Assembly (NCBI GenBank): GCA_009841145.1
Contig: VXMJ01000020.1
Location: 25,128-89,127, forward strand
From: Caldilineaceae bacterium SB0661_bin_34
GTDB lineage: Bacteria; Chloroflexota; Anaerolineae; Caldilineales; Caldilineaceae
DNA length: 64,000 nt
Reading direction: 5' to 3'
The notes below the pieces were generated by a model that made no database searches, was not told the origin of the DNA, and saw only the letters and a program-made list of their open reading frames with translations. How positions within the stretch are numbered: position 1 is the stretch's first letter; every line of letters starts with the position of its first letter. A program made the translations under genes and the position numbers. Positions 42,551 through 49,400 of the stretch are shown here, in pieces.

Positions 42551-43354
42551 ATGTCAAACAGCCCCCTGAAAGTGCACGTCACAGGCGTGTACGGTCTCAT
42601 CGGCAACCTTGTCTACGGCCATCTCAACAAGCAGCCGGAACGCTATGACGTCCACGGCAGCAGCCGACGTTCCGCCAGTTCCATCCGTGCCGATGCCGAT
42701 TCACTGATCCGGCTGCCGGACACGCACTTTACGCAAGCCGATCTGGGGGATGCCGAAGCCATGCTGCAAGCCATTGCCGGCATGGACGCCGTATTGCATA
42801 TCGGGGCGGTACCGGATCCCGGAGCCCCGTTTGAGGACGTGCTGCACAGCAATGTGGTCGGAACCTACAACGTGCTGGAAGCCTGTCGGGAGGCGGGAGT
42901 CAAGCGCCTCGTTTACGCCAGTTCCGTCATGGCCACCATGGGCTACTTCTACTATCAGGAACCCTACAACGCCATCCGCGAAGAGCGCTTTGAGGACGTA
43001 CCGGAGGATATTCCCCTCATTACACCTGCAGATCTGCCCCGTCCCACCGAACCCTATTCGGCCAGCAAGGTCTGGGGGGAAGGCATTTGCCGGACCTACC
43101 ACGATGCCCACGACATCGCCGCCGTGTGCCTGCGCATCGGGGCCGTCAACAAGGAAGACCGCAGCCTGTTTGGCTGGACCGATTCCCTCTGGTGCAGCCA
43201 GCGGGACGTAGCCAACATCATCGAACTCGCGCTGCAGGCGACCGCGTCGCCCTGTTTCCACATCTGCTACGGGATTTCGGACAATCGGCATCGCTGGGTC
43301 GACCTGGAACCTTCGAGGCAGGCGCTGGGTTTTGAGCCCCAGGACGGCGCGTAG
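42551..43354 (+). CDS. NAD(P)-dependent epimerase/dehydrogenase, extended SDR
   Basis: 267 residues. The cofactor motif TGVYGLIG (11-18) gives the Gly pattern G12-x-x-G15-x-x-G18, and the active site YSASK has Tyr169 and Lys173. Similar in length and pattern to uronate dehydrogenases and sugar epimerases. GGAGA ends five bases before the ATG. It lies between a desaturase-Rieske oxygenase and a sialidase, which fits sugar modification or catabolism. The real substrate is not known. Confidence 0.85.
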   Translation: MSNSPLKVHVTGVYGLIGNLVYGHLNKQPERYDVHGSSRRSASSIRADADSLIRLPDTHFTQADLGDAEAMLQAIAGMDAVLHIGAVPDPGAPFEDVLHSNVVGTYNVLEACREAGVKRLVYASSVMATMGYFYYQEPYNAIREERFEDVPEDIPLITPADLPRPTEPYSASKVWGEGICRTYHDAHDIAAVCLRIGAVNKEDRSLFGWTDSLWCSQRDVANIIELALQATASPCFHICYGISDNRHRWVDLEPSRQALGFEPQDGA

Positions 43355-43457
43355 ACCGTCCCGTCCGGCATGGCGGACCATGCCTGTAGGATTCTCAAGT
43401 CCCTGCCGGTGGCAGCATCCCGGCCACCCCCAACCAAAGTCCGGAGACGACGCCATC

Positions 43458-44504
43458 ATGCTGGATGAGCAAGTACTGTTCCAGAGCGGAACCCTTGGGT
43501 ACCACACCTTCCGCATTCCGGCCCTGCTGACGTTGAGCAGTGGACGCGTGCTGGCCTTTGCCGAAGGTCGCGTCCACGGACCCGGTGATGCAGGCACCAT
43601 CGAACTGGTCCTGCGCCGCAGCGACGATCACGGCACCAGCTGGTCCGATCTGCAGGTCGTAGTCAAGGAGGCCGACATGACCTGTGGCAATCCGTGTCCG
43701 GTCCAGGACCGCGCCACAGGCACCATCTGGCTCTGGTTCTGCAAGAACACCGCCGAAGGCGGGGAAGGACTGATTGTTCAAGGCAAGGCCAAACGCACAG
43801 TCTGGCTAACGCACAGCCTGGACGACGGAGACAACTGGAGCGAGCCGGTTGACATGACCGACAGGGTGATGCAACCCGACTGGACCTGGTACGCGACCGG
43901 ACCGGGCCACGGTATCCAGCTGCAGACTGGACGCATGATCGTGCCTTGCGACCACATGGTGGGCATCCATCTGGACCGCACCAAAGATCCCTACCATTCC
44001 CACGTGGTGTTTAGCGACGACGGAGGAGCCACCTGGCACATCGGCGGCATCGTCAGGGACGGGACCAACGAATGCGAGGTGGTGGAACTGTTGAACGGCG
44101 ACGTGATGATCAACTGTCGCAACTATGCTGACCGTAGCCAACGGGCCGTTGCCATCAGCCGGGATCTGGGTTCCTCCTTCGAGGAATTTCGGTGGGACCA
44201 AGCCTTGATCGAACCCGTCTGCCAGGCGAGTATCGTCCGTTGGCCCCAGGCCGACAATGGCCTGCTGTTTGCCAATCCGGCCTCCGCCACCGACCGAACC
44301 CGGATGACGGTTCGGCATAGCACGGACGAAGGGTTTTCCTGGCCGCGGGCCAAGCTGCTCCATGCCGGACCAGCTGCGTACAGCGACTTGGCCGTTTCGG
44401 CCGAGGGAACCGCCCTGTGCCTCTACGAAAGGGGGATTGACGGACCCCGCGAGACCCTCACCCTGGCCCGGTTCAACACCAACTGGCTGGCGGAAGCCCC
44501 ATGA
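43458..44504 (+). CDS. BNR-repeat exo-alpha-sialidase-like protein
   Basis: 348 residues of a six-bladed sialidase-like propeller. FRIP at 18-21 carries the conserved Arg that begins the triad in true sialidases. Asp-boxes are SDDHGTSW (55-62), SLDDGDNW (120-127), SDDGGATW (186-193) and STDEGFSW (288-295), with a degenerate SRDLGSSF (234-241). No signal peptide is visible, so the protein is probably cytoplasmic and acts on imported glycans. It could be a different glycosidase with the same fold. It abuts the IS607 remnant. Confidence 0.8.
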   Translation: MLDEQVLFQSGTLGYHTFRIPALLTLSSGRVLAFAEGRVHGPGDAGTIELVLRRSDDHGTSWSDLQVVVKEADMTCGNPCPVQDRATGTIWLWFCKNTAEGGEGLIVQGKAKRTVWLTHSLDDGDNWSEPVDMTDRVMQPDWTWYATGPGHGIQLQTGRMIVPCDHMVGIHLDRTKDPYHSHVVFSDDGGATWHIGGIVRDGTNECEVVELLNGDVMINCRNYADRSQRAVAISRDLGSSFEEFRWDQALIEPVCQASIVRWPQADNGLLFANPASATDRTRMTVRHSTDEGFSWPRAKLLHAGPAAYSDLAVSAEGTALCLYERGIDGPRETLTLARFNTNWLAEAP

Positions 44505-44550
44505 GTTGCCTGCCGCCGCAAAACTCCACAGAAGCCACGGCCCTGTTCCT

Positions 44551-45978
44551 TTACCTGGTCCATTTCGGTACCGGTGCGGGTGATTCGCTCTCGGTTGATG
44601 GGGGCTCCGTTGCACGCCCCCGCAACTCGAGTCCGGGTGGAGCAGTCCCCACCGTAGTCCTGGTTCGTTCCGCGAGCAGGGCGCGCACGTCCCTGTAGGG
44701 CATGTACAACGTGATCTCCTCGTCGTACAGCCTCGCCAGAATGTTGCAGGCGGCATTGACGTCCGCGTCCAGCACAACCCCGTCGAGACAGTAAAACCGG
44801 TCCCAGCGACGACGGCCCTGCAACAGGCCCGTGCGGGAGTCGACTTGCGATGTGTAGGCCGGATTGACCAATGCCAACGCAGAACCTCTGCGCCGAGATA
44901 TCGAAGTGAAGGTGTCCGCCATCACGCCCTTGACCCACCCGTTCAAACGGCGGTTGGTGTCCCGGTGGCGGTACGGAGCGGACTTCATGGGCATGGACAG
45001 GTCCTCGCAGGCGATCGTGCCGGCCTTGTCCACGACGGTGTGGGCGGCGTGGCAGAGGTGGTCGCGCACCTGCCTGTGGTGCCGGGTCCGTCGCCGGTCC
45101 CACTTCTGGTTGCCGAGGTTGTGCTTCCGGATGGTGTCGGCCTTGCGGTGGTTGCCCTTGGCCCGGTGCTTCTGCTCGGTGTCCCGGAGGTGATTGCGCC
45201 GTGTTCCCTTGACCTTGCGCCGGTCGCTCTCCGCGGACAACAGGTCACCCAGACCCTCGCCATGACGCTCCCCGTCACTGTCGGTGTAGGCCTCGGTGTA
45301 GCCCTTGTCCACGCCCACGGTGGCCTCCCCGCAGGGGCGCGTGCTGCACACCCGGGTCTCGTCCACCGCGTAGTGGACTTCCACCTGTCCGTTGTCCCGC
45401 AGGAGGATGCGGAGGGTGCCGGAAGGCAGGTGCGTGCCCTTGAGCGGAATGGCGATGCGTTGGCCGCGTTCCAAACCCTGGAGGTAGACCCAGGCCCGGT
45501 CGTGCCAGGCCTTGGTGGTGTAGGAGCCCGCGTCGGCCACGATCTGGTTCGTCACATGGGACCGGCCGCCCCACCACTGTTGCCGCATCTGCCGGTGCAG
45601 GAACGGGTCCTCGGTCCAGCGGTTCCGCTTGAGCAGGCTGTACAGACGCTCGCGTTCGACACTGTTTCCGCGCGTGCGGTGCCGGATGGCCTTCTTGACC
45701 GGCACCTTGGCCGCTTCCCTGCCGGCTTGGATGTCGCCCAGGGCATCCGCCAGGGTCGCCTTGCCCAGACGCGCCGGCAGCCCGTGCCAGTCATAGCCCT
45801 CCGCCATCCAGGCATCGCGGATGTCGTAGGGGGACTGCTGTGCGGTGGACACCCCGCTACACCGTCGCCAGGCATCCGCGCGCACCTGTCCGCACAGGAC
45901 GGCGGTCCGCGCCAACCGGTCGTACTTGGCCGCGTTCAGCCCCTGGCTGTGAAGTACGCGCGTGACCTTCTCAGCCAT
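44551..45978 (-). CDS. tnpB: TnpB-family RNA-guided nuclease homologue without zinc ribbon
   Basis: 475 residues. The RuvC catalytic residues are kept: Asp224 in VGVDKGYTEAYT, Glu325 in IACEDLSMP and Asp406 in LDADVNAACNI. The usual four-Cys ribbon between the Glu and last Asp is gone: the region around TSQVDSRTGLLQGRRRWDR has Val-Asp where CxxC belongs, and only one Cys (397) remains. The C-terminus extends about 60 residues past NAACNILARL and ends in a proline-rich tail. It starts eight bases before the end of the truncated tnpA. TnpB uses a guide RNA copied from the element's own end. Here the 3' flank runs into the sialidase gene. Confidence 0.8.
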   Translation of the reverse strand: MAEKVTRVLHSQGLNAAKYDRLARTAVLCGQVRADAWRRCSGVSTAQQSPYDIRDAWMAEGYDWHGLPARLGKATLADALGDIQAGREAAKVPVKKAIRHRTRGNSVERERLYSLLKRNRWTEDPFLHRQMRQQWWGGRSHVTNQIVADAGSYTTKAWHDRAWVYLQGLERGQRIAIPLKGTHLPSGTLRILLRDNGQVEVHYAVDETRVCSTRPCGEATVGVDKGYTEAYTDSDGERHGEGLGDLLSAESDRRKVKGTRRNHLRDTEQKHRAKGNHRKADTIRKHNLGNQKWDRRRTRHHRQVRDHLCHAAHTVVDKAGTIACEDLSMPMKSAPYRHRDTNRRLNGWVKGVMADTFTSISRRRGSALALVNPAYTSQVDSRTGLLQGRRRWDRFYCLDGVVLDADVNAACNILARLYDEEITLYMPYRDVRALLAERTRTTVGTAPPGLELRGRATEPPSTESESPAPVPKWTR

Positions 45979-46387
45979 CGCTGGCGGCTTTCCGGATCTG
46001 CTTCCGATACCGGCGCAGGCCGGGCAGGTGGCCGGAGAAGGTGTCGACCACGGCCATCAGGTCCTCGACCCACTCCGCCTGCGGGGACAGGGAGGGCTGG
46101 TTGACCACCCGGATCTCGCAGCCGTGGCTCTCGGCGAAGTACGCGAACCAGTCAAACCCGAACCGGCAGGGACGATCCTCGTGGGCGACCAGCAGGAGGC
46201 CCGGTTCGCGCTTCCCGATCCGTTCCCTCAACGAACGGAACACGGGCCGCTGGAAGTCCAGGCCGTCCCCGATTTTGGTCAGCCACTCGTCCACCGCCAG
46301 GTCTGCCCCCAGGCAGAACGTCTCCATTGCCTGCTCTTGGCCGCGAACGCGGCGGCCCGATGGATTTTCATATCCACAGAATACCAC
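45971..46387 (-). pseudogene. Serine recombinase TnpA of IS607, N-terminally truncated
   Basis: 138 residues matching the C-terminal half of IS607-type TnpA: QEQAMETFC, AVDEWLTKIG, VAHEDRPCRFGFDWFAYFAE, VEDLMAVVDTFSGHL and GLRRYRKQIRKA are all recognisable. Missing are the first 70-85 residues: the MerR-like DNA-binding domain and the catalytic Ser of the YxRVSS motif. The first 16 residues are unrelated sequence. Recombination is therefore not expected. It overlaps the tnpB start. Confidence 0.8.
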
Positions 46388-46429
46388 AGGATACCTTTCA
46401 GTGCCGGTATGTCGTGCTAGTAAGATGCT

Positions 46430-49400
46430 CTAGTCCTCACCCGGGGCAAAACAGAGCGATGTTTCGGTCTCGGCCGGGTGATCCAGGCCAAACAGGTCCG
46501 TCACCTGCCACGAAGCGGGTTCCTGTCGGATGATGGGCAGCGCAGCCTGACAGGCCTGCACCGGATCGGCATGTTCCGCGTAGGCCGAACGCCAGGCATC
46601 CGCGATGCGGACATGGATCGCGTCGGTGCCCACGTCGGCCTTCATGTCCTCTAGGGCCAATATGCTGGACCGCATGTCCCCTGCCAGTCCGTGCGCCTGG
46701 ACCAGGCGGAACCAGGCAAGGCCGCGCAGCAGTGACTTCTCCTGATCCGGATTGGTGCCCACAATGCTGCACGTTGTGAGGGTTGGGTTGTCGAGAATGT
46801 CGCCGTACATCTGAATTGCGGGACCGTATCCGTAGTAGGGCCCCCCGGCCAACAGATAGTCCGCTTCGACCAGGTTCAGGCCAAGGCAGCGGCTGTCCGG
46901 ATCCAAAGGGTCATACTCAAACCAAACCCGGTGGAACGGCAAGCCGCCGATGCTCTCCCACAACTCCACGTGGCTCACCTGAACGTCAGTGTCCAGCAAA
47001 CCGGACACACCGCCCTCCAGGACAATCTGATAGCCGTCGCCGGGATTGGTGTCCGGCACCGGCGCCAGCCGCGTCGTGCCGTTGGTGATGACGGCCCCCT
47101 TGCCGATGAAGTTGTTGACCGTATCCCCGTTCCAGGTAAGGACCTCCACGGTCGACAGACACACCGCGTTGCACACCTCATCCACCCAGGCCAGTTCCGA
47201 CTTCGTGTCGTTGTTCAGGTCCTGCAGCGCCAACAAGGACGGTAGACCAACCACGGCCGGTTCGAAAATCAGGTTGGAGGCGTTGCCGAACGACCCGTAG
47301 TAAACAGCTAGGCGGCCACCGTAGCCGTCGGGTCCCTGGCCGTCGGTCTCCTCGCGTCCCACAATCGCCACCGTGTCGTCGTGGCCATCGCTGTTCAGGT
47401 CCAGCTGAGACAGAGTCCCGATGCTGTCGGAGACCACCTCGCACAACCGCAGCCATGTCTCCACCAGCAGCAGATCCCCCTGGAGTCCGTTGAGCAGGCT
47501 CTCAATCATACGCGGATAGCCGTCCAGCGTGCCCGGACACTCGGGCAGGTCGTCGGAGGCCGCAAATGCTTCGGGGGACAGGTTGCGCAGTTCCTCAGCA
47601 TTGGGGAACAGGGCCAACTCGGCCGGGGGCGTCGTGGATGCCTGCGGATCCACCGCCGGTTCGATATCAAGACGCTGACCAAACTCTCCTTCGATCACCG
47701 GACACACGGCATCCGGGGTCATGCCGGGGTTTGACCAGCCAAACAGGCCGAAGGGCTGCCAAGTTGCCGGATGCGCCTTGGCCCAGGCCTGCGCGGCGGC
47801 ACAGCCCACAATGGGATCGTCAGCGCCGGTATAGGCCGCGAGCCAGTTCCGTCCCAGGCCGGTGAACGGCGATGCCGGATAGGCCTGCTCCAGCACGTTG
47901 ACAATCTCCGCCGCCACATCTGGCTGTTGCTGATACGACGCGATGACAGCCAACCGCAGAAGACTGAAGGCCCGCATGAAATCCTGTTCCGTGGCGTCGT
48001 GCCAAACCTGCAGGCTGTCGTCCGCCAAGACCTGCCGGTACAGCTGTTGGGCACTGTGCAGGTCCTGGTACGGGGACTGCACCGTTTTCAGGTGCGCCTC
48101 GAGCACGACATGGTACAGGTGGGTGGTGGGACCGAATTCCAGGGCCTGCAACGCAAAGGGCTGTCCCTGGCGGCTGGCCCAAATCTCCGTGCGCGCCCGT
48201 TGGGGGCCGGCTCCCTCGGCCTGGTGCACGCCGCCCTGCAGGCGAATCGCCAAACCATCACCCAAAACGTCGGCATCCATCAGGCGCACATCCGCGTTGA
48301 CCATGGAAATCGGCGTCTCGGTCCAGTCCTGCCAGGTCGCCGTTTTCTGATCCCAGCTCATGGCATGGACGCGGGTGTAGCAGGCACTTGCCCCGCAGGA
48401 CTGATCCGTCCAGACCAGATCCCGACGCAAGTCGGAGTTGACATCCCCGGCCGCGAGCAACGACACGCGTCCCGAAGCCCTGGTCTGCAGCGCCGGTTGC
48501 AGGTTTTCTCCAAGCCAATGCAGCAGCAGCAAATCGGTACGCTCCGGTACATCGGGTTCCGCCAAACCGCCGCTCTCCAACGTGACCAGCAGATCGTTGA
48601 AACCATCACCGTTGATGTCCTGGCCGTCCACCAACTCGCCCACGGTCAGATTGCACAGACCGGCACTGCGGGCAATCCCCTGTGCCTTGCCCTGCCAGTA
48701 GTCGAGGGCGCTGCGAATGAAGTCCGCATACCCGGGCGGAGCCGTGCAGACCGGCGGCGGCAGAGTGGGATCGGGGATCAGGCTGCCGCCGACAGCATCC
48801 TCCGACTGCAGGCCCGGCGCGTCCGGCTTAACCCGGTAGCTCAGCGGAACCACCACGCCTTCCGGCAGGCTGGCCATGGCCACGGACGGGTCGAACTCAA
48901 AGGAGGGCCCGCTGTCCGCCTCCGCATTGAGCAACGGGACGAGAAGCCGCACTCCAACCGCCAAGGATCCTGCACTGCCGCCCAACTGGGGATTGGTGGC
49001 CACCAGCAGTCCAACCGATACATCATATGTACTGGCAACCGATGCCAGGCTGTCTCCCGGCTGCACATCGTGATACCGCGGCTGCCCGGCAGACGGTACC
49101 TGGATTTGCTCGCCGGTGTACAGAAGATCGAAGTTGCGGACTGCCTGCGGATTGACCTGCTGCAGTACGGAAATGGTTTGTCCGGTCGCCTGGGCAATGG
49201 CAAACCAAGTGTCGCCAGGCTGCACATAGTAGGTATAGCCGCTGACCCCGGTCTGGGCCAACGACGCAACGGTCTGGCCTGTGGCTGTCCACAGGCAGGC
49301 GACAACCAGGATTTGGACGACGAACCGGACCCATCCAGGCCGTGGACGCGCGCAAAGATCAAGCAGGAACCTGTCCCTCTTCGCACGCTGGCTCGGATGA

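What the first reader, a model, noticed from the sequence alone, without database searches (positions are those of the whole stretch)
44551..45978. TnpB with intact RuvC residues but no zinc ribbon
Asp224, Glu325 and Asp406 are present, but the four-Cys ribbon that normally sits between the last two is replaced by non-Cys residues. The C-terminal extension is about 60 residues. Nuclease function may persist, or this is a lineage that has moved away from transposition.
Basis: seen in the sequence. Interest (0 to 1): 0.5.

Follow-up and report, generated by a model that had tools for sequence, protein, structure and literature searches.

The report
Zinc-free guided nuclease of an IS607 element
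This gene belongs to a bacterial jumping element and makes an RNA-guided DNA-cutting protein that has done away with the zinc-binding loop its relatives carry, while its cutting site and guide RNA look intact, so it is a natural test of whether that loop is needed.

Summary
Window 44551-45978 (minus strand) encodes a 475-aa TnpB with RuvC residues D224, E325 and D406; three of the four zinc-ribbon cysteines are gone (C397 remains). This is not decay. In 61 distinct family segments the first Cys position is Asp in 58 and Cys in 1, and relatives in Chloroflexota, Proteobacteria, Cyanobacteria and a Helicobacter prophage lack the C4 motif too. The gene sits in an IS607-type element (44545-46427, flanked by AG) with many copies in this genome. 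Other copies have intact serine-recombinase TnpA, and two insertions have empty sites in related genomes. This copy is crippled only in tnpA (202-bp deletion). The 'C-terminal extension' is largely a 115-nt guide-RNA scaffold read as protein. Its stem-loops covary, it ends at the element's right end, and the guide then comes from flanking DNA. A model of it finds the RNA in 20 of 23 family loci and in none of 54 other TnpB loci. Best reading: a zinc-ribbon-less IS607 TnpB lineage that probably still cuts DNA by RNA guidance, with predicted TAM RGAG (RGTG in one subfamily). Activity was not tested.

The parts
44545..46427 (-). IS607-type element proper (CATC...GGAAC), 1,883 bp, flanked on both sides by the dinucleotide AG
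   Evidence: all copies lose homology at these ends; junction dinucleotide from empty sites and matching left/right cores; window junctions read
46428..46431 (-). AGAG: predicted TAM / target motif RGAG at the left junction, last two bases (AG) are the crossover core
   Evidence: RGAG in 11 of 12 distinct left junctions of this subfamily and RGTG in 7 of 7 of the other; 5 of 5 empty sites read GGAG
45971..46387 (-). tnpA remnant: C-terminal part of an IS607 serine recombinase; HTH and catalytic Ser region removed, first ~16 codons not homologous
   Evidence: NF033518 matched only from profile position 74, 84.6 bits, below cut-off 110; full-length TnpA in other copies
46335..46339 (-). deletion scar: 202 bp of tnpA missing between 5-bp repeats, compared with copy L002
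   Evidence: overlapping blastn pieces
44551..45978 (-). tnpB, 475 aa, zinc-ribbon-less
45307..45309 (-). RuvC-I Asp224 (in G-V-D-K-G)
   Evidence: 65 of 65 family segments
45004..45006 (-). RuvC-II Glu325
   Evidence: 56 of 57 family segments
44761..44853 (-). TNB region without C4 ribbon (residues 376-406), ending in RuvC-III Asp406
   Evidence: beta strands 388-391 and 394-397 in the model
44543..44657 (-). guide-RNA (omegaRNA) scaffold, 115 nt, overlapping the last ~35 codons and the stop of tnpB; three stem-loops and a pseudoknot between the SL1 loop (CUG) and the terminal CAG
44523..44542 (-). guide segment taken from flanking DNA (20 nt assumed)
   Evidence: sequence after the right end differs from insertion to insertion; length assumed from TnpB literature

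Best explanation
The gene is the TnpB of an IS607-type insertion sequence from a lineage that lost the TNB zinc ribbon long ago and kept everything else. SHOWN by sequence: an old, clade-wide ribbon loss with conserved RuvC residues; an element with fixed ends, empty sites and a matching crossover dinucleotide (AG, or TG in a subfamily); and a conserved, covarying RNA scaffold that ends at the right end, so that the guide is flanking DNA. INFERRED: TnpA moves the element as a circle by recombination at the dinucleotide; TnpB binds the scaffold made from the 3' end of its own mRNA, recognises RGAG (or RGTG) followed by the guide-matching sequence at donor or empty sites, and cuts it with the RuvC site, which favours retention of the element by repair from an occupied copy. 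The TNB fold is held by a zinc-free beta hairpin built on the invariant or near-invariant D380, S381, G388, R390, F395 and G400. This particular copy cannot move by its own TnpA but could be moved by the intact TnpA of sister copies, and may still supply the nuclease.
For: Triad and ribbon tallies. Ribbon-less family is one clade, 100/100 support, on a tree without the ribbon columns. The predicted fold (pLDDT 81.8, pTM 0.49) matches ISDra2 TnpB 8h1j Z 15.1 over 333 residues, AsCas12f 8dzj Z 15.4 and ISFba1 TnpB 8iaz Z 13.1. dN/dS 0.26 in codons 1-430 over 190 pairs of 20 copies. Scaffold: 4-fold-site difference 0.092 in codons 438-457 against 0.17-0.45 in every window before codon 398; pair structure 97.2% paired with covariation 0.203 against 0.101 in shuffles, 0 of 500 as high, and 29-54% paired when slid; covariance model hits 20 of 23 family loci at E 6e-5 or better and 0 of 54 other TnpB loci below E 0.1. 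In the TG subfamily the tnpB stop lies inside the scaffold yet the downstream box and stem persist. Empty sites in 2 of 3 and 3 of 3 related genomes for two insertions. Left and right core dinucleotides agree, AG/AG and TG/TG.
Against: No activity or expression data exist here. The model's pTM is only 0.49. Many copies are fragments and some have stops. The window copy has a broken tnpA and one mismatch in its 3' stem against sister copies. NCBIfam's guided_TnpB cut-off is missed (81.9 against 100). Rfam has no match. Two of four joined-flank queries found no contiguous empty site. The scaffold was not found in the two Calothrix relatives or in L120. RuvC-I reads D-K-G rather than the D-hydrophobic-G that PMC10711439 calls typical. 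Codons 398-417, outside the scaffold, are even more conserved at 4-fold sites (0.075).
Confidence: 0.8

Rival explanations
1. The lineage has become an RNA-guided DNA binder rather than a cutter (TldR-like repressor): guide RNA kept, cutting lost with the zinc ribbon because substrate loading fails.
For: The TNB domain is thought to help load DNA into RuvC in Cas12 (passage in PMC10097598). Two viral-contig relatives, L115 and L120, have lost the RuvC-III Asp.
Against: All three catalytic residues are conserved in nearly all members, which a binder would not need; members sit in mobile elements next to TnpA. The two relatives without D406 are the ones that have ribbon-like cysteines, the opposite of what this predicts.
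Confidence: 0.1
2. Decaying pseudo-element: the ribbon was lost by relaxed selection and the gene is on its way out.
For: tnpA of this copy is deleted; many copies in the genome are partial or interrupted; this copy has a mismatch in the last stem.
Against: The ribbon-less motif is shared by relatives at 38-51% identity in other phyla and in viral contigs and replaced by specific conserved residues; dN/dS 0.26; scaffold conserved. Decay fits this one copy's tnpA, not the ribbon loss.
Confidence: 0.07
3. Zinc is still bound, through C397 and non-Cys ligands (Asp/His) or at a new site.
For: C397 is kept in 42 of 61 segments and Asp is fixed at the first Cys position; Asp can bind zinc (general knowledge).
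Against: C397 is Arg, Gly, Thr or Ser in 19 of 61 segments; position 383 varies freely; no conserved Cys/His set replaces the four.
Confidence: 0.03

Closest known systems
ISXfa1 TnpB and other IS607 TnpBs (PMC10711439, passages read)
   Same: Serine-recombinase TnpA upstream; reRNA of about 150 nt at the right end; a base derived from the flanking site forms part of the scaffold; three stem-loops plus a pseudoknot with guide-proximal bases; G-rich TAM (GGG for ISXfa1)
   Different: Here the crossover dinucleotide is AG or TG rather than GG, the predicted TAM is RGAG/RGTG, and the ribbon is absent; whether ISXfa1 TnpB itself has a ribbon could not be checked here
ISDra2 TnpB (IS605; PDB 8h1j, 8exa; PMC10097598 passages)
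   Same: Overall fold (Z 15.1 over 333 residues), RuvC triad, guide-RNA scaffold overlapping the 3' end of the gene, disordered C-terminus there
   Different: ISDra2 has a C331-C334-C351-C354 zinc finger and a Y1 transposase; TAM TTGAT
ISFba1 IS607 TnpB with RAGATH-18 RNA (PMC11061315 passages; PDB 8iaz Z 13.1)
   Same: IS607 TnpB with A/G-rich TAM (AGGAG), close to the RGAG predicted here
   Different: Its RNA is separate from the coding sequence and is an Rfam family; here the RNA overlaps the gene and Rfam finds nothing
Cas12j19 / Cas12-2 and Cas12X (PDB 8xcc, 8wru, 8zqb)
   Same: RuvC-II to RuvC-III stretch with an incomplete ribbon (TSQTSCITDEFG...DADVNAA), weak profile match E 0.001
   Different: Large CRISPR effectors of about 900 aa, not transposon TnpBs

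Membership tests
TnpB | RuvC D-E-D triad | tested here: met
   D224 65/65, E325 56/57, D406 58/61
TnpB | C4 zinc finger before RuvC-III (motif of PMC3627910, passages) | tested here: not met
   three of four Cys absent in the window copy; first Cys is Asp in 58 of 61 segments
TnpB | Match to curated models | tested here: inconclusive
   Pfam PF07282 passes (36.9, cut-off 26.3); NCBIfam guided_TnpB 81.9 below cut-off 100
TnpB | Right-end guide-RNA scaffold followed by flanking-DNA guide | tested here: met
   (by sequence and covariation, not by RNA)
TnpB | RNA-guided DNA cleavage | not testable with these tools
   needs biochemistry
IS607 element | Serine-recombinase TnpA with N-terminal HTH, upstream of tnpB | tested here: met
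   met in sister copies (HTH and YCRVS; Pfam Resolvase and MerR for L002); the window copy itself lacks both parts
IS607 element | Insertion at a matching overlap dinucleotide (PMC4058570 passages) | tested here: met
   AG/AG and TG/TG cores, empty sites
IS607 element | No terminal inverted repeats (abstract of PMC6188088) | not tested
   inverted repeats were not searched for with a tool
IS607 element | Circular intermediate | not testable with these tools
   needs PCR or reads
TldR (nuclease-dead TnpB repressor) | Loss of RuvC catalytic residues (recalled) | tested here: not met
   triad intact
Fanzor / pro-Fanzor | RuvC-I DPG and rearranged RuvC-II Glu next to the ribbon (PMC10711439) | tested here: not met
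   D-K-G; Glu325 lies 55 residues before the position of the first ribbon Cys
RAGATH-18-guided IS607 TnpB | RAGATH-18 RNA downstream | tested here: not met
   no Rfam match to it at E up to 10 in window 43000-48000

The most novel reading that the evidence does not exclude
A zinc-independent TnpB lineage is widespread in mobile elements of several phyla, and in it the transposase's crossover dinucleotide, the guide-RNA pseudoknot and the target motif have changed together: AG-core elements pair SL1 loop CUG with terminal CAG and sit after RGAG, while TG-core elements pair CGG with CUG and sit after RGTG. The recombinase's choice of site and the nuclease's RNA would then be locked by a single base pair formed partly from target DNA.
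Probability: 0.5. Interest if true: 0.55.

Novelty: new variant of a known kind. Interest (0 to 1): 0.42.

Why it matters
The C4 ribbon has been treated as part of the signature of TnpB and Fanzor (PMC3627910, passages read). A whole lineage without it, with guide RNA and catalytic site conserved, makes the role of the ribbon directly testable and offers candidate zinc-independent compact nucleases. It also shows how such genes fall below curated model cut-offs. The matched change of crossover dinucleotide and RNA pseudoknot would be a clear case of a transposase and a guide RNA evolving together.

Tried and rejected
Frameshift or misplaced cysteines: rejected, the frame is open and relatives read alike. 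Rfam families: two chance-level matches only. Single-sequence PDB search: no match; the profile search gave only weak Cas12 matches. Widening within Chloroflexota: of 301 genomes 50 had a match, but only the own genome gave strong full-length ones; the rest are weak matches mostly over the RuvC part. Whether this family and a second ribbon-less group (L121 onward) lost the ribbon once or twice: undecided, AU p 0.12; 32 of 106 rows were dropped before that tree (near-copies, partial rows, long branches and part of the second group, including L115, L118 and L120; the list is in the script). Joined-flank searches for the window copy and for copy L048 gave no contiguous empty site; one search shows that the two flanks of the window copy belong to different neighbourhoods in related genomes. 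In one search the loop motif of L038, L039 and L046 was picked wrongly by the script (ACCG); by eye it is ACTG. Literature (search listings): searches listed no paper whose title or abstract start describes a ribbon-less IS607 TnpB lineage; PMC10711439 says 'many', not all, TnpBs have the finger; the main TnpB survey (PMC10691335) is not held, so prior description cannot be excluded. A sponge-symbiont search was unhelpful.

Full report
WHAT IS THERE. The ORF at 44551-45978 is on the minus strand and encodes 475 aa without interruption. Pfam recognises the TNB domain (PF07282, 36.9 bits, cut-off 26.3); NCBIfam's guided_TnpB model aligns to residues 130-416 but below its cut-off. The ribbon reads TSQVDSRTG...FYCLDG, so three of four cysteines are gone. 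Overlapping upstream (45971-46387) is the C-terminal part of an IS607 serine recombinase.

THE LOSS IS OLD AND SHARED. The own genome has 62 tblastn matches to the protein, eight of them near full length at 80-100% identity including the query itself. Records of Caldilineales MAGs and one MAG labelled Acidobacteria gave 29 loci. Plasmids gave 26 records (Acinetobacter, Vibrio, Photobacterium, Methylovirgula, Thiodictyon, Calothrix, Cupriavidus) at 28-48% identity. Phage records gave one, a Helicobacter felis prophage. IMG/VR gave 13 further relatives at 38-51% (L107-L119). Of the relatives aligned, the motif is T-S-Q-x-D-S with an invariant or nearly invariant G, R, F and G after it. In 61 distinct segments of family loci, position 380 is Asp in 58. 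The family forms one clade with 100/100 support on a tree built without the ribbon columns and without L115, L118 and L120; in the fuller quick tree L115 and L120, which have cysteines, fall inside the family. A second, distant ribbon-less group of about 400-aa proteins exists in viral contigs; one common loss is not rejected (AU p 0.12).

CATALYTIC SITE AND FOLD. D224 is present in 65 of 65 segments, E325 in 56 of 57 and D406 in 58 of 61. RuvC-III is of the DADxN type, like the 'derived' TnpBs (NADxN) of PMC10278001 (section 13 read). RuvC-I is D-K-G, which differs from the D-hydrophobic-G described as typical in PMC10711439 (passages). An AlphaFold2 model from 18 rows has mean pLDDT 81.8 and pTM 0.49; residues 443-475 are disordered and residues 388-397 form two short strands in the TNB. 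It matches Cas12f, ISDra2 TnpB, Fanzor2 and ISFba1 TnpB over most of its length (Z 13-15). Relative positions of the domains are uncertain (rmsd mostly 8-10 A). Codons 1-430 evolve with dN/dS about 0.26 over 190 pairs of 20 copies.

THE ELEMENT. Comparing copies, homology stops at window 46430/46431 and 44542/44543. Of 41 right-end rows (some the same copy held twice), 37 end in GGAACAG, and what follows differs between insertions. Element lengths of 2,080-2,096 bp were measured in six loci; the window copy is shorter because 202 bp of tnpA are missing between 5-bp repeats. Full-length TnpA with an HTH and the YCRVS serine motif was seen in the Caldilineales copies L002, L004, L007, L008, L009, L012, L016, L027, L029, L030 and L035, and a complete TnpA also in L038, L039, L040, L042 and L111, among 37 loci examined; the others are truncated, interrupted, mutated or not recognised by the pattern.

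EMPTY SITES AND TARGET MOTIF. Of four joined-flank queries, two gave contiguous empty sites: copy L049 in 2 of 3 other genomes of the genus and copy L053 in 3 of 3; the window copy and L048 did not. In all five empty sites the target reads GGAG at the junction. The element therefore lies between two copies of AG, one of which was in the target. Left junctions read RGAG in 11 of 12 distinct copies of this subfamily (one GGAT) and RGTG in 7 of 7 of a second subfamily; the second subfamily's right end is GGAACTG, so left and right cores agree. Three gammaproteobacterial elements also read RGAG at their inferred left ends, judged by eye from pairwise alignments. IS607 is known to recombine at a matching dinucleotide, GG in IS607 itself (PMC4058570 passages).

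THE GUIDE RNA. The last part of tnpB is unusually conserved at synonymous sites: 0.092 in codons 438-457, and dS is 0.164 in codons 437-475 against 0.429 in the core while dN/dS rises to 0.86-0.91. Codons 398-417 are lower still (0.075); they lie outside the scaffold as I drew it and remain unexplained. The region folds as three stem-loops in the window copy, in a TG-subfamily copy and in Photobacterium, with z-scores -2.4, -5.6 and -4.5. On 23 aligned scaffolds (chosen from 60 distinct ones), two stems plus a pseudoknot give 97.2% paired cells, 23 cells with changes on both sides, and a covariation score that none of 500 shuffles reached; related sequences inflate such counts. A covariance model finds the RNA in 20 of 23 family loci, always at the 3' end of tnpB, and not in L043, L044 or L120; in 54 other TnpB loci the best match is E 0.16. 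In the TG subfamily the tnpB stop lies inside the scaffold, yet the GAGAGCGAA box, the last stem and the right end continue. The loop-to-end pairing is ACTG with AG in 41 and ACGG with TG in 9 of 60 scaffolds; the other ten are L034 (ACGG with AG), L037 (ACAG with AG), two rows ending AT, three rows where the script found no loop and three where it picked the wrong one. The change from AG to TG may be one event in the tree.

HOW IT MOST LIKELY WORKS. Inferred from the above and from the TnpB literature: transcription through tnpB gives an RNA whose 3' scaffold is bound by TnpB and whose guide is the DNA flanking that insertion. After TnpA excises the element, the rejoined site carries RGAG plus the guide match, is cut, and is repaired from a chromosome that still has the element. 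The zinc-free TNB hairpin does the job of the ribbon. This copy cannot be moved by its own TnpA.

HOST AND SPREAD. With scattered relatives in other phyla this points to horizontal acquisition and expansion in this genus; that is inference.

WHAT IS KNOWN. The ISXfa1 work (PMC10711439, passages) already established that an IS607 TnpB is an RNA-guided nuclease whose scaffold takes in a flanking base and needs a pseudoknot. What is added here is a ribbon-less lineage, its RNA family, and the AG/TG correspondence. I found no paper on it in the searches listed under Tried and rejected, but the main survey could not be read.

Noticed in passing
L115:1742-3103 and L120:1-906 (IMG/VR contigs): Relatives in the same family that carry ribbon-like cysteine pairs (ICSKCG...FHCASGCG; ICSCG...FYCQCG) but have lost the RuvC-III Asp, the reverse of the rest of the family; candidate nuclease-dead proteins. 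L115 still has the family's RNA scaffold, L120 does not.
   Followed up: partly
L121 to L184 (most), IMG/VR contigs: A second, large and distant group of about 400-aa TnpB-like proteins without the ribbon (TSQxD...GxRxGxRY...DGxVLDADxNAA), RuvC residues mostly intact; 47 rows. The RNA model of this family finds nothing in those tested.
   Followed up: partly
L038:1253-1894, L039:1263-1895, L040:1252-1887: The gammaproteobacterial versions of the element carry an extra ORF of about 210 aa upstream of tnpA; L038's is 49-52% identical to the other two, with no clear Pfam family.
   Followed up: partly
window 46431 onward against 44542 downward; L186, L187, L188: In related genomes the LysM-type gene left of the element is followed by the sequence that here lies beside another copy (L084), so the window junction is either a recombination between two copies or an assembly misjoin.
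   Followed up: partly
window 44728-44787 (codons 398-417 of tnpB): Lowest synonymous diversity of the gene (0.075) lies upstream of the scaffold as drawn; perhaps a longer RNA or a regulatory segment.
   Followed up: no
L039:4708-5946: An ordinary ribbon-bearing TnpB gene lies beside the ribbon-less element on the same Vibrio plasmid.
   Followed up: no
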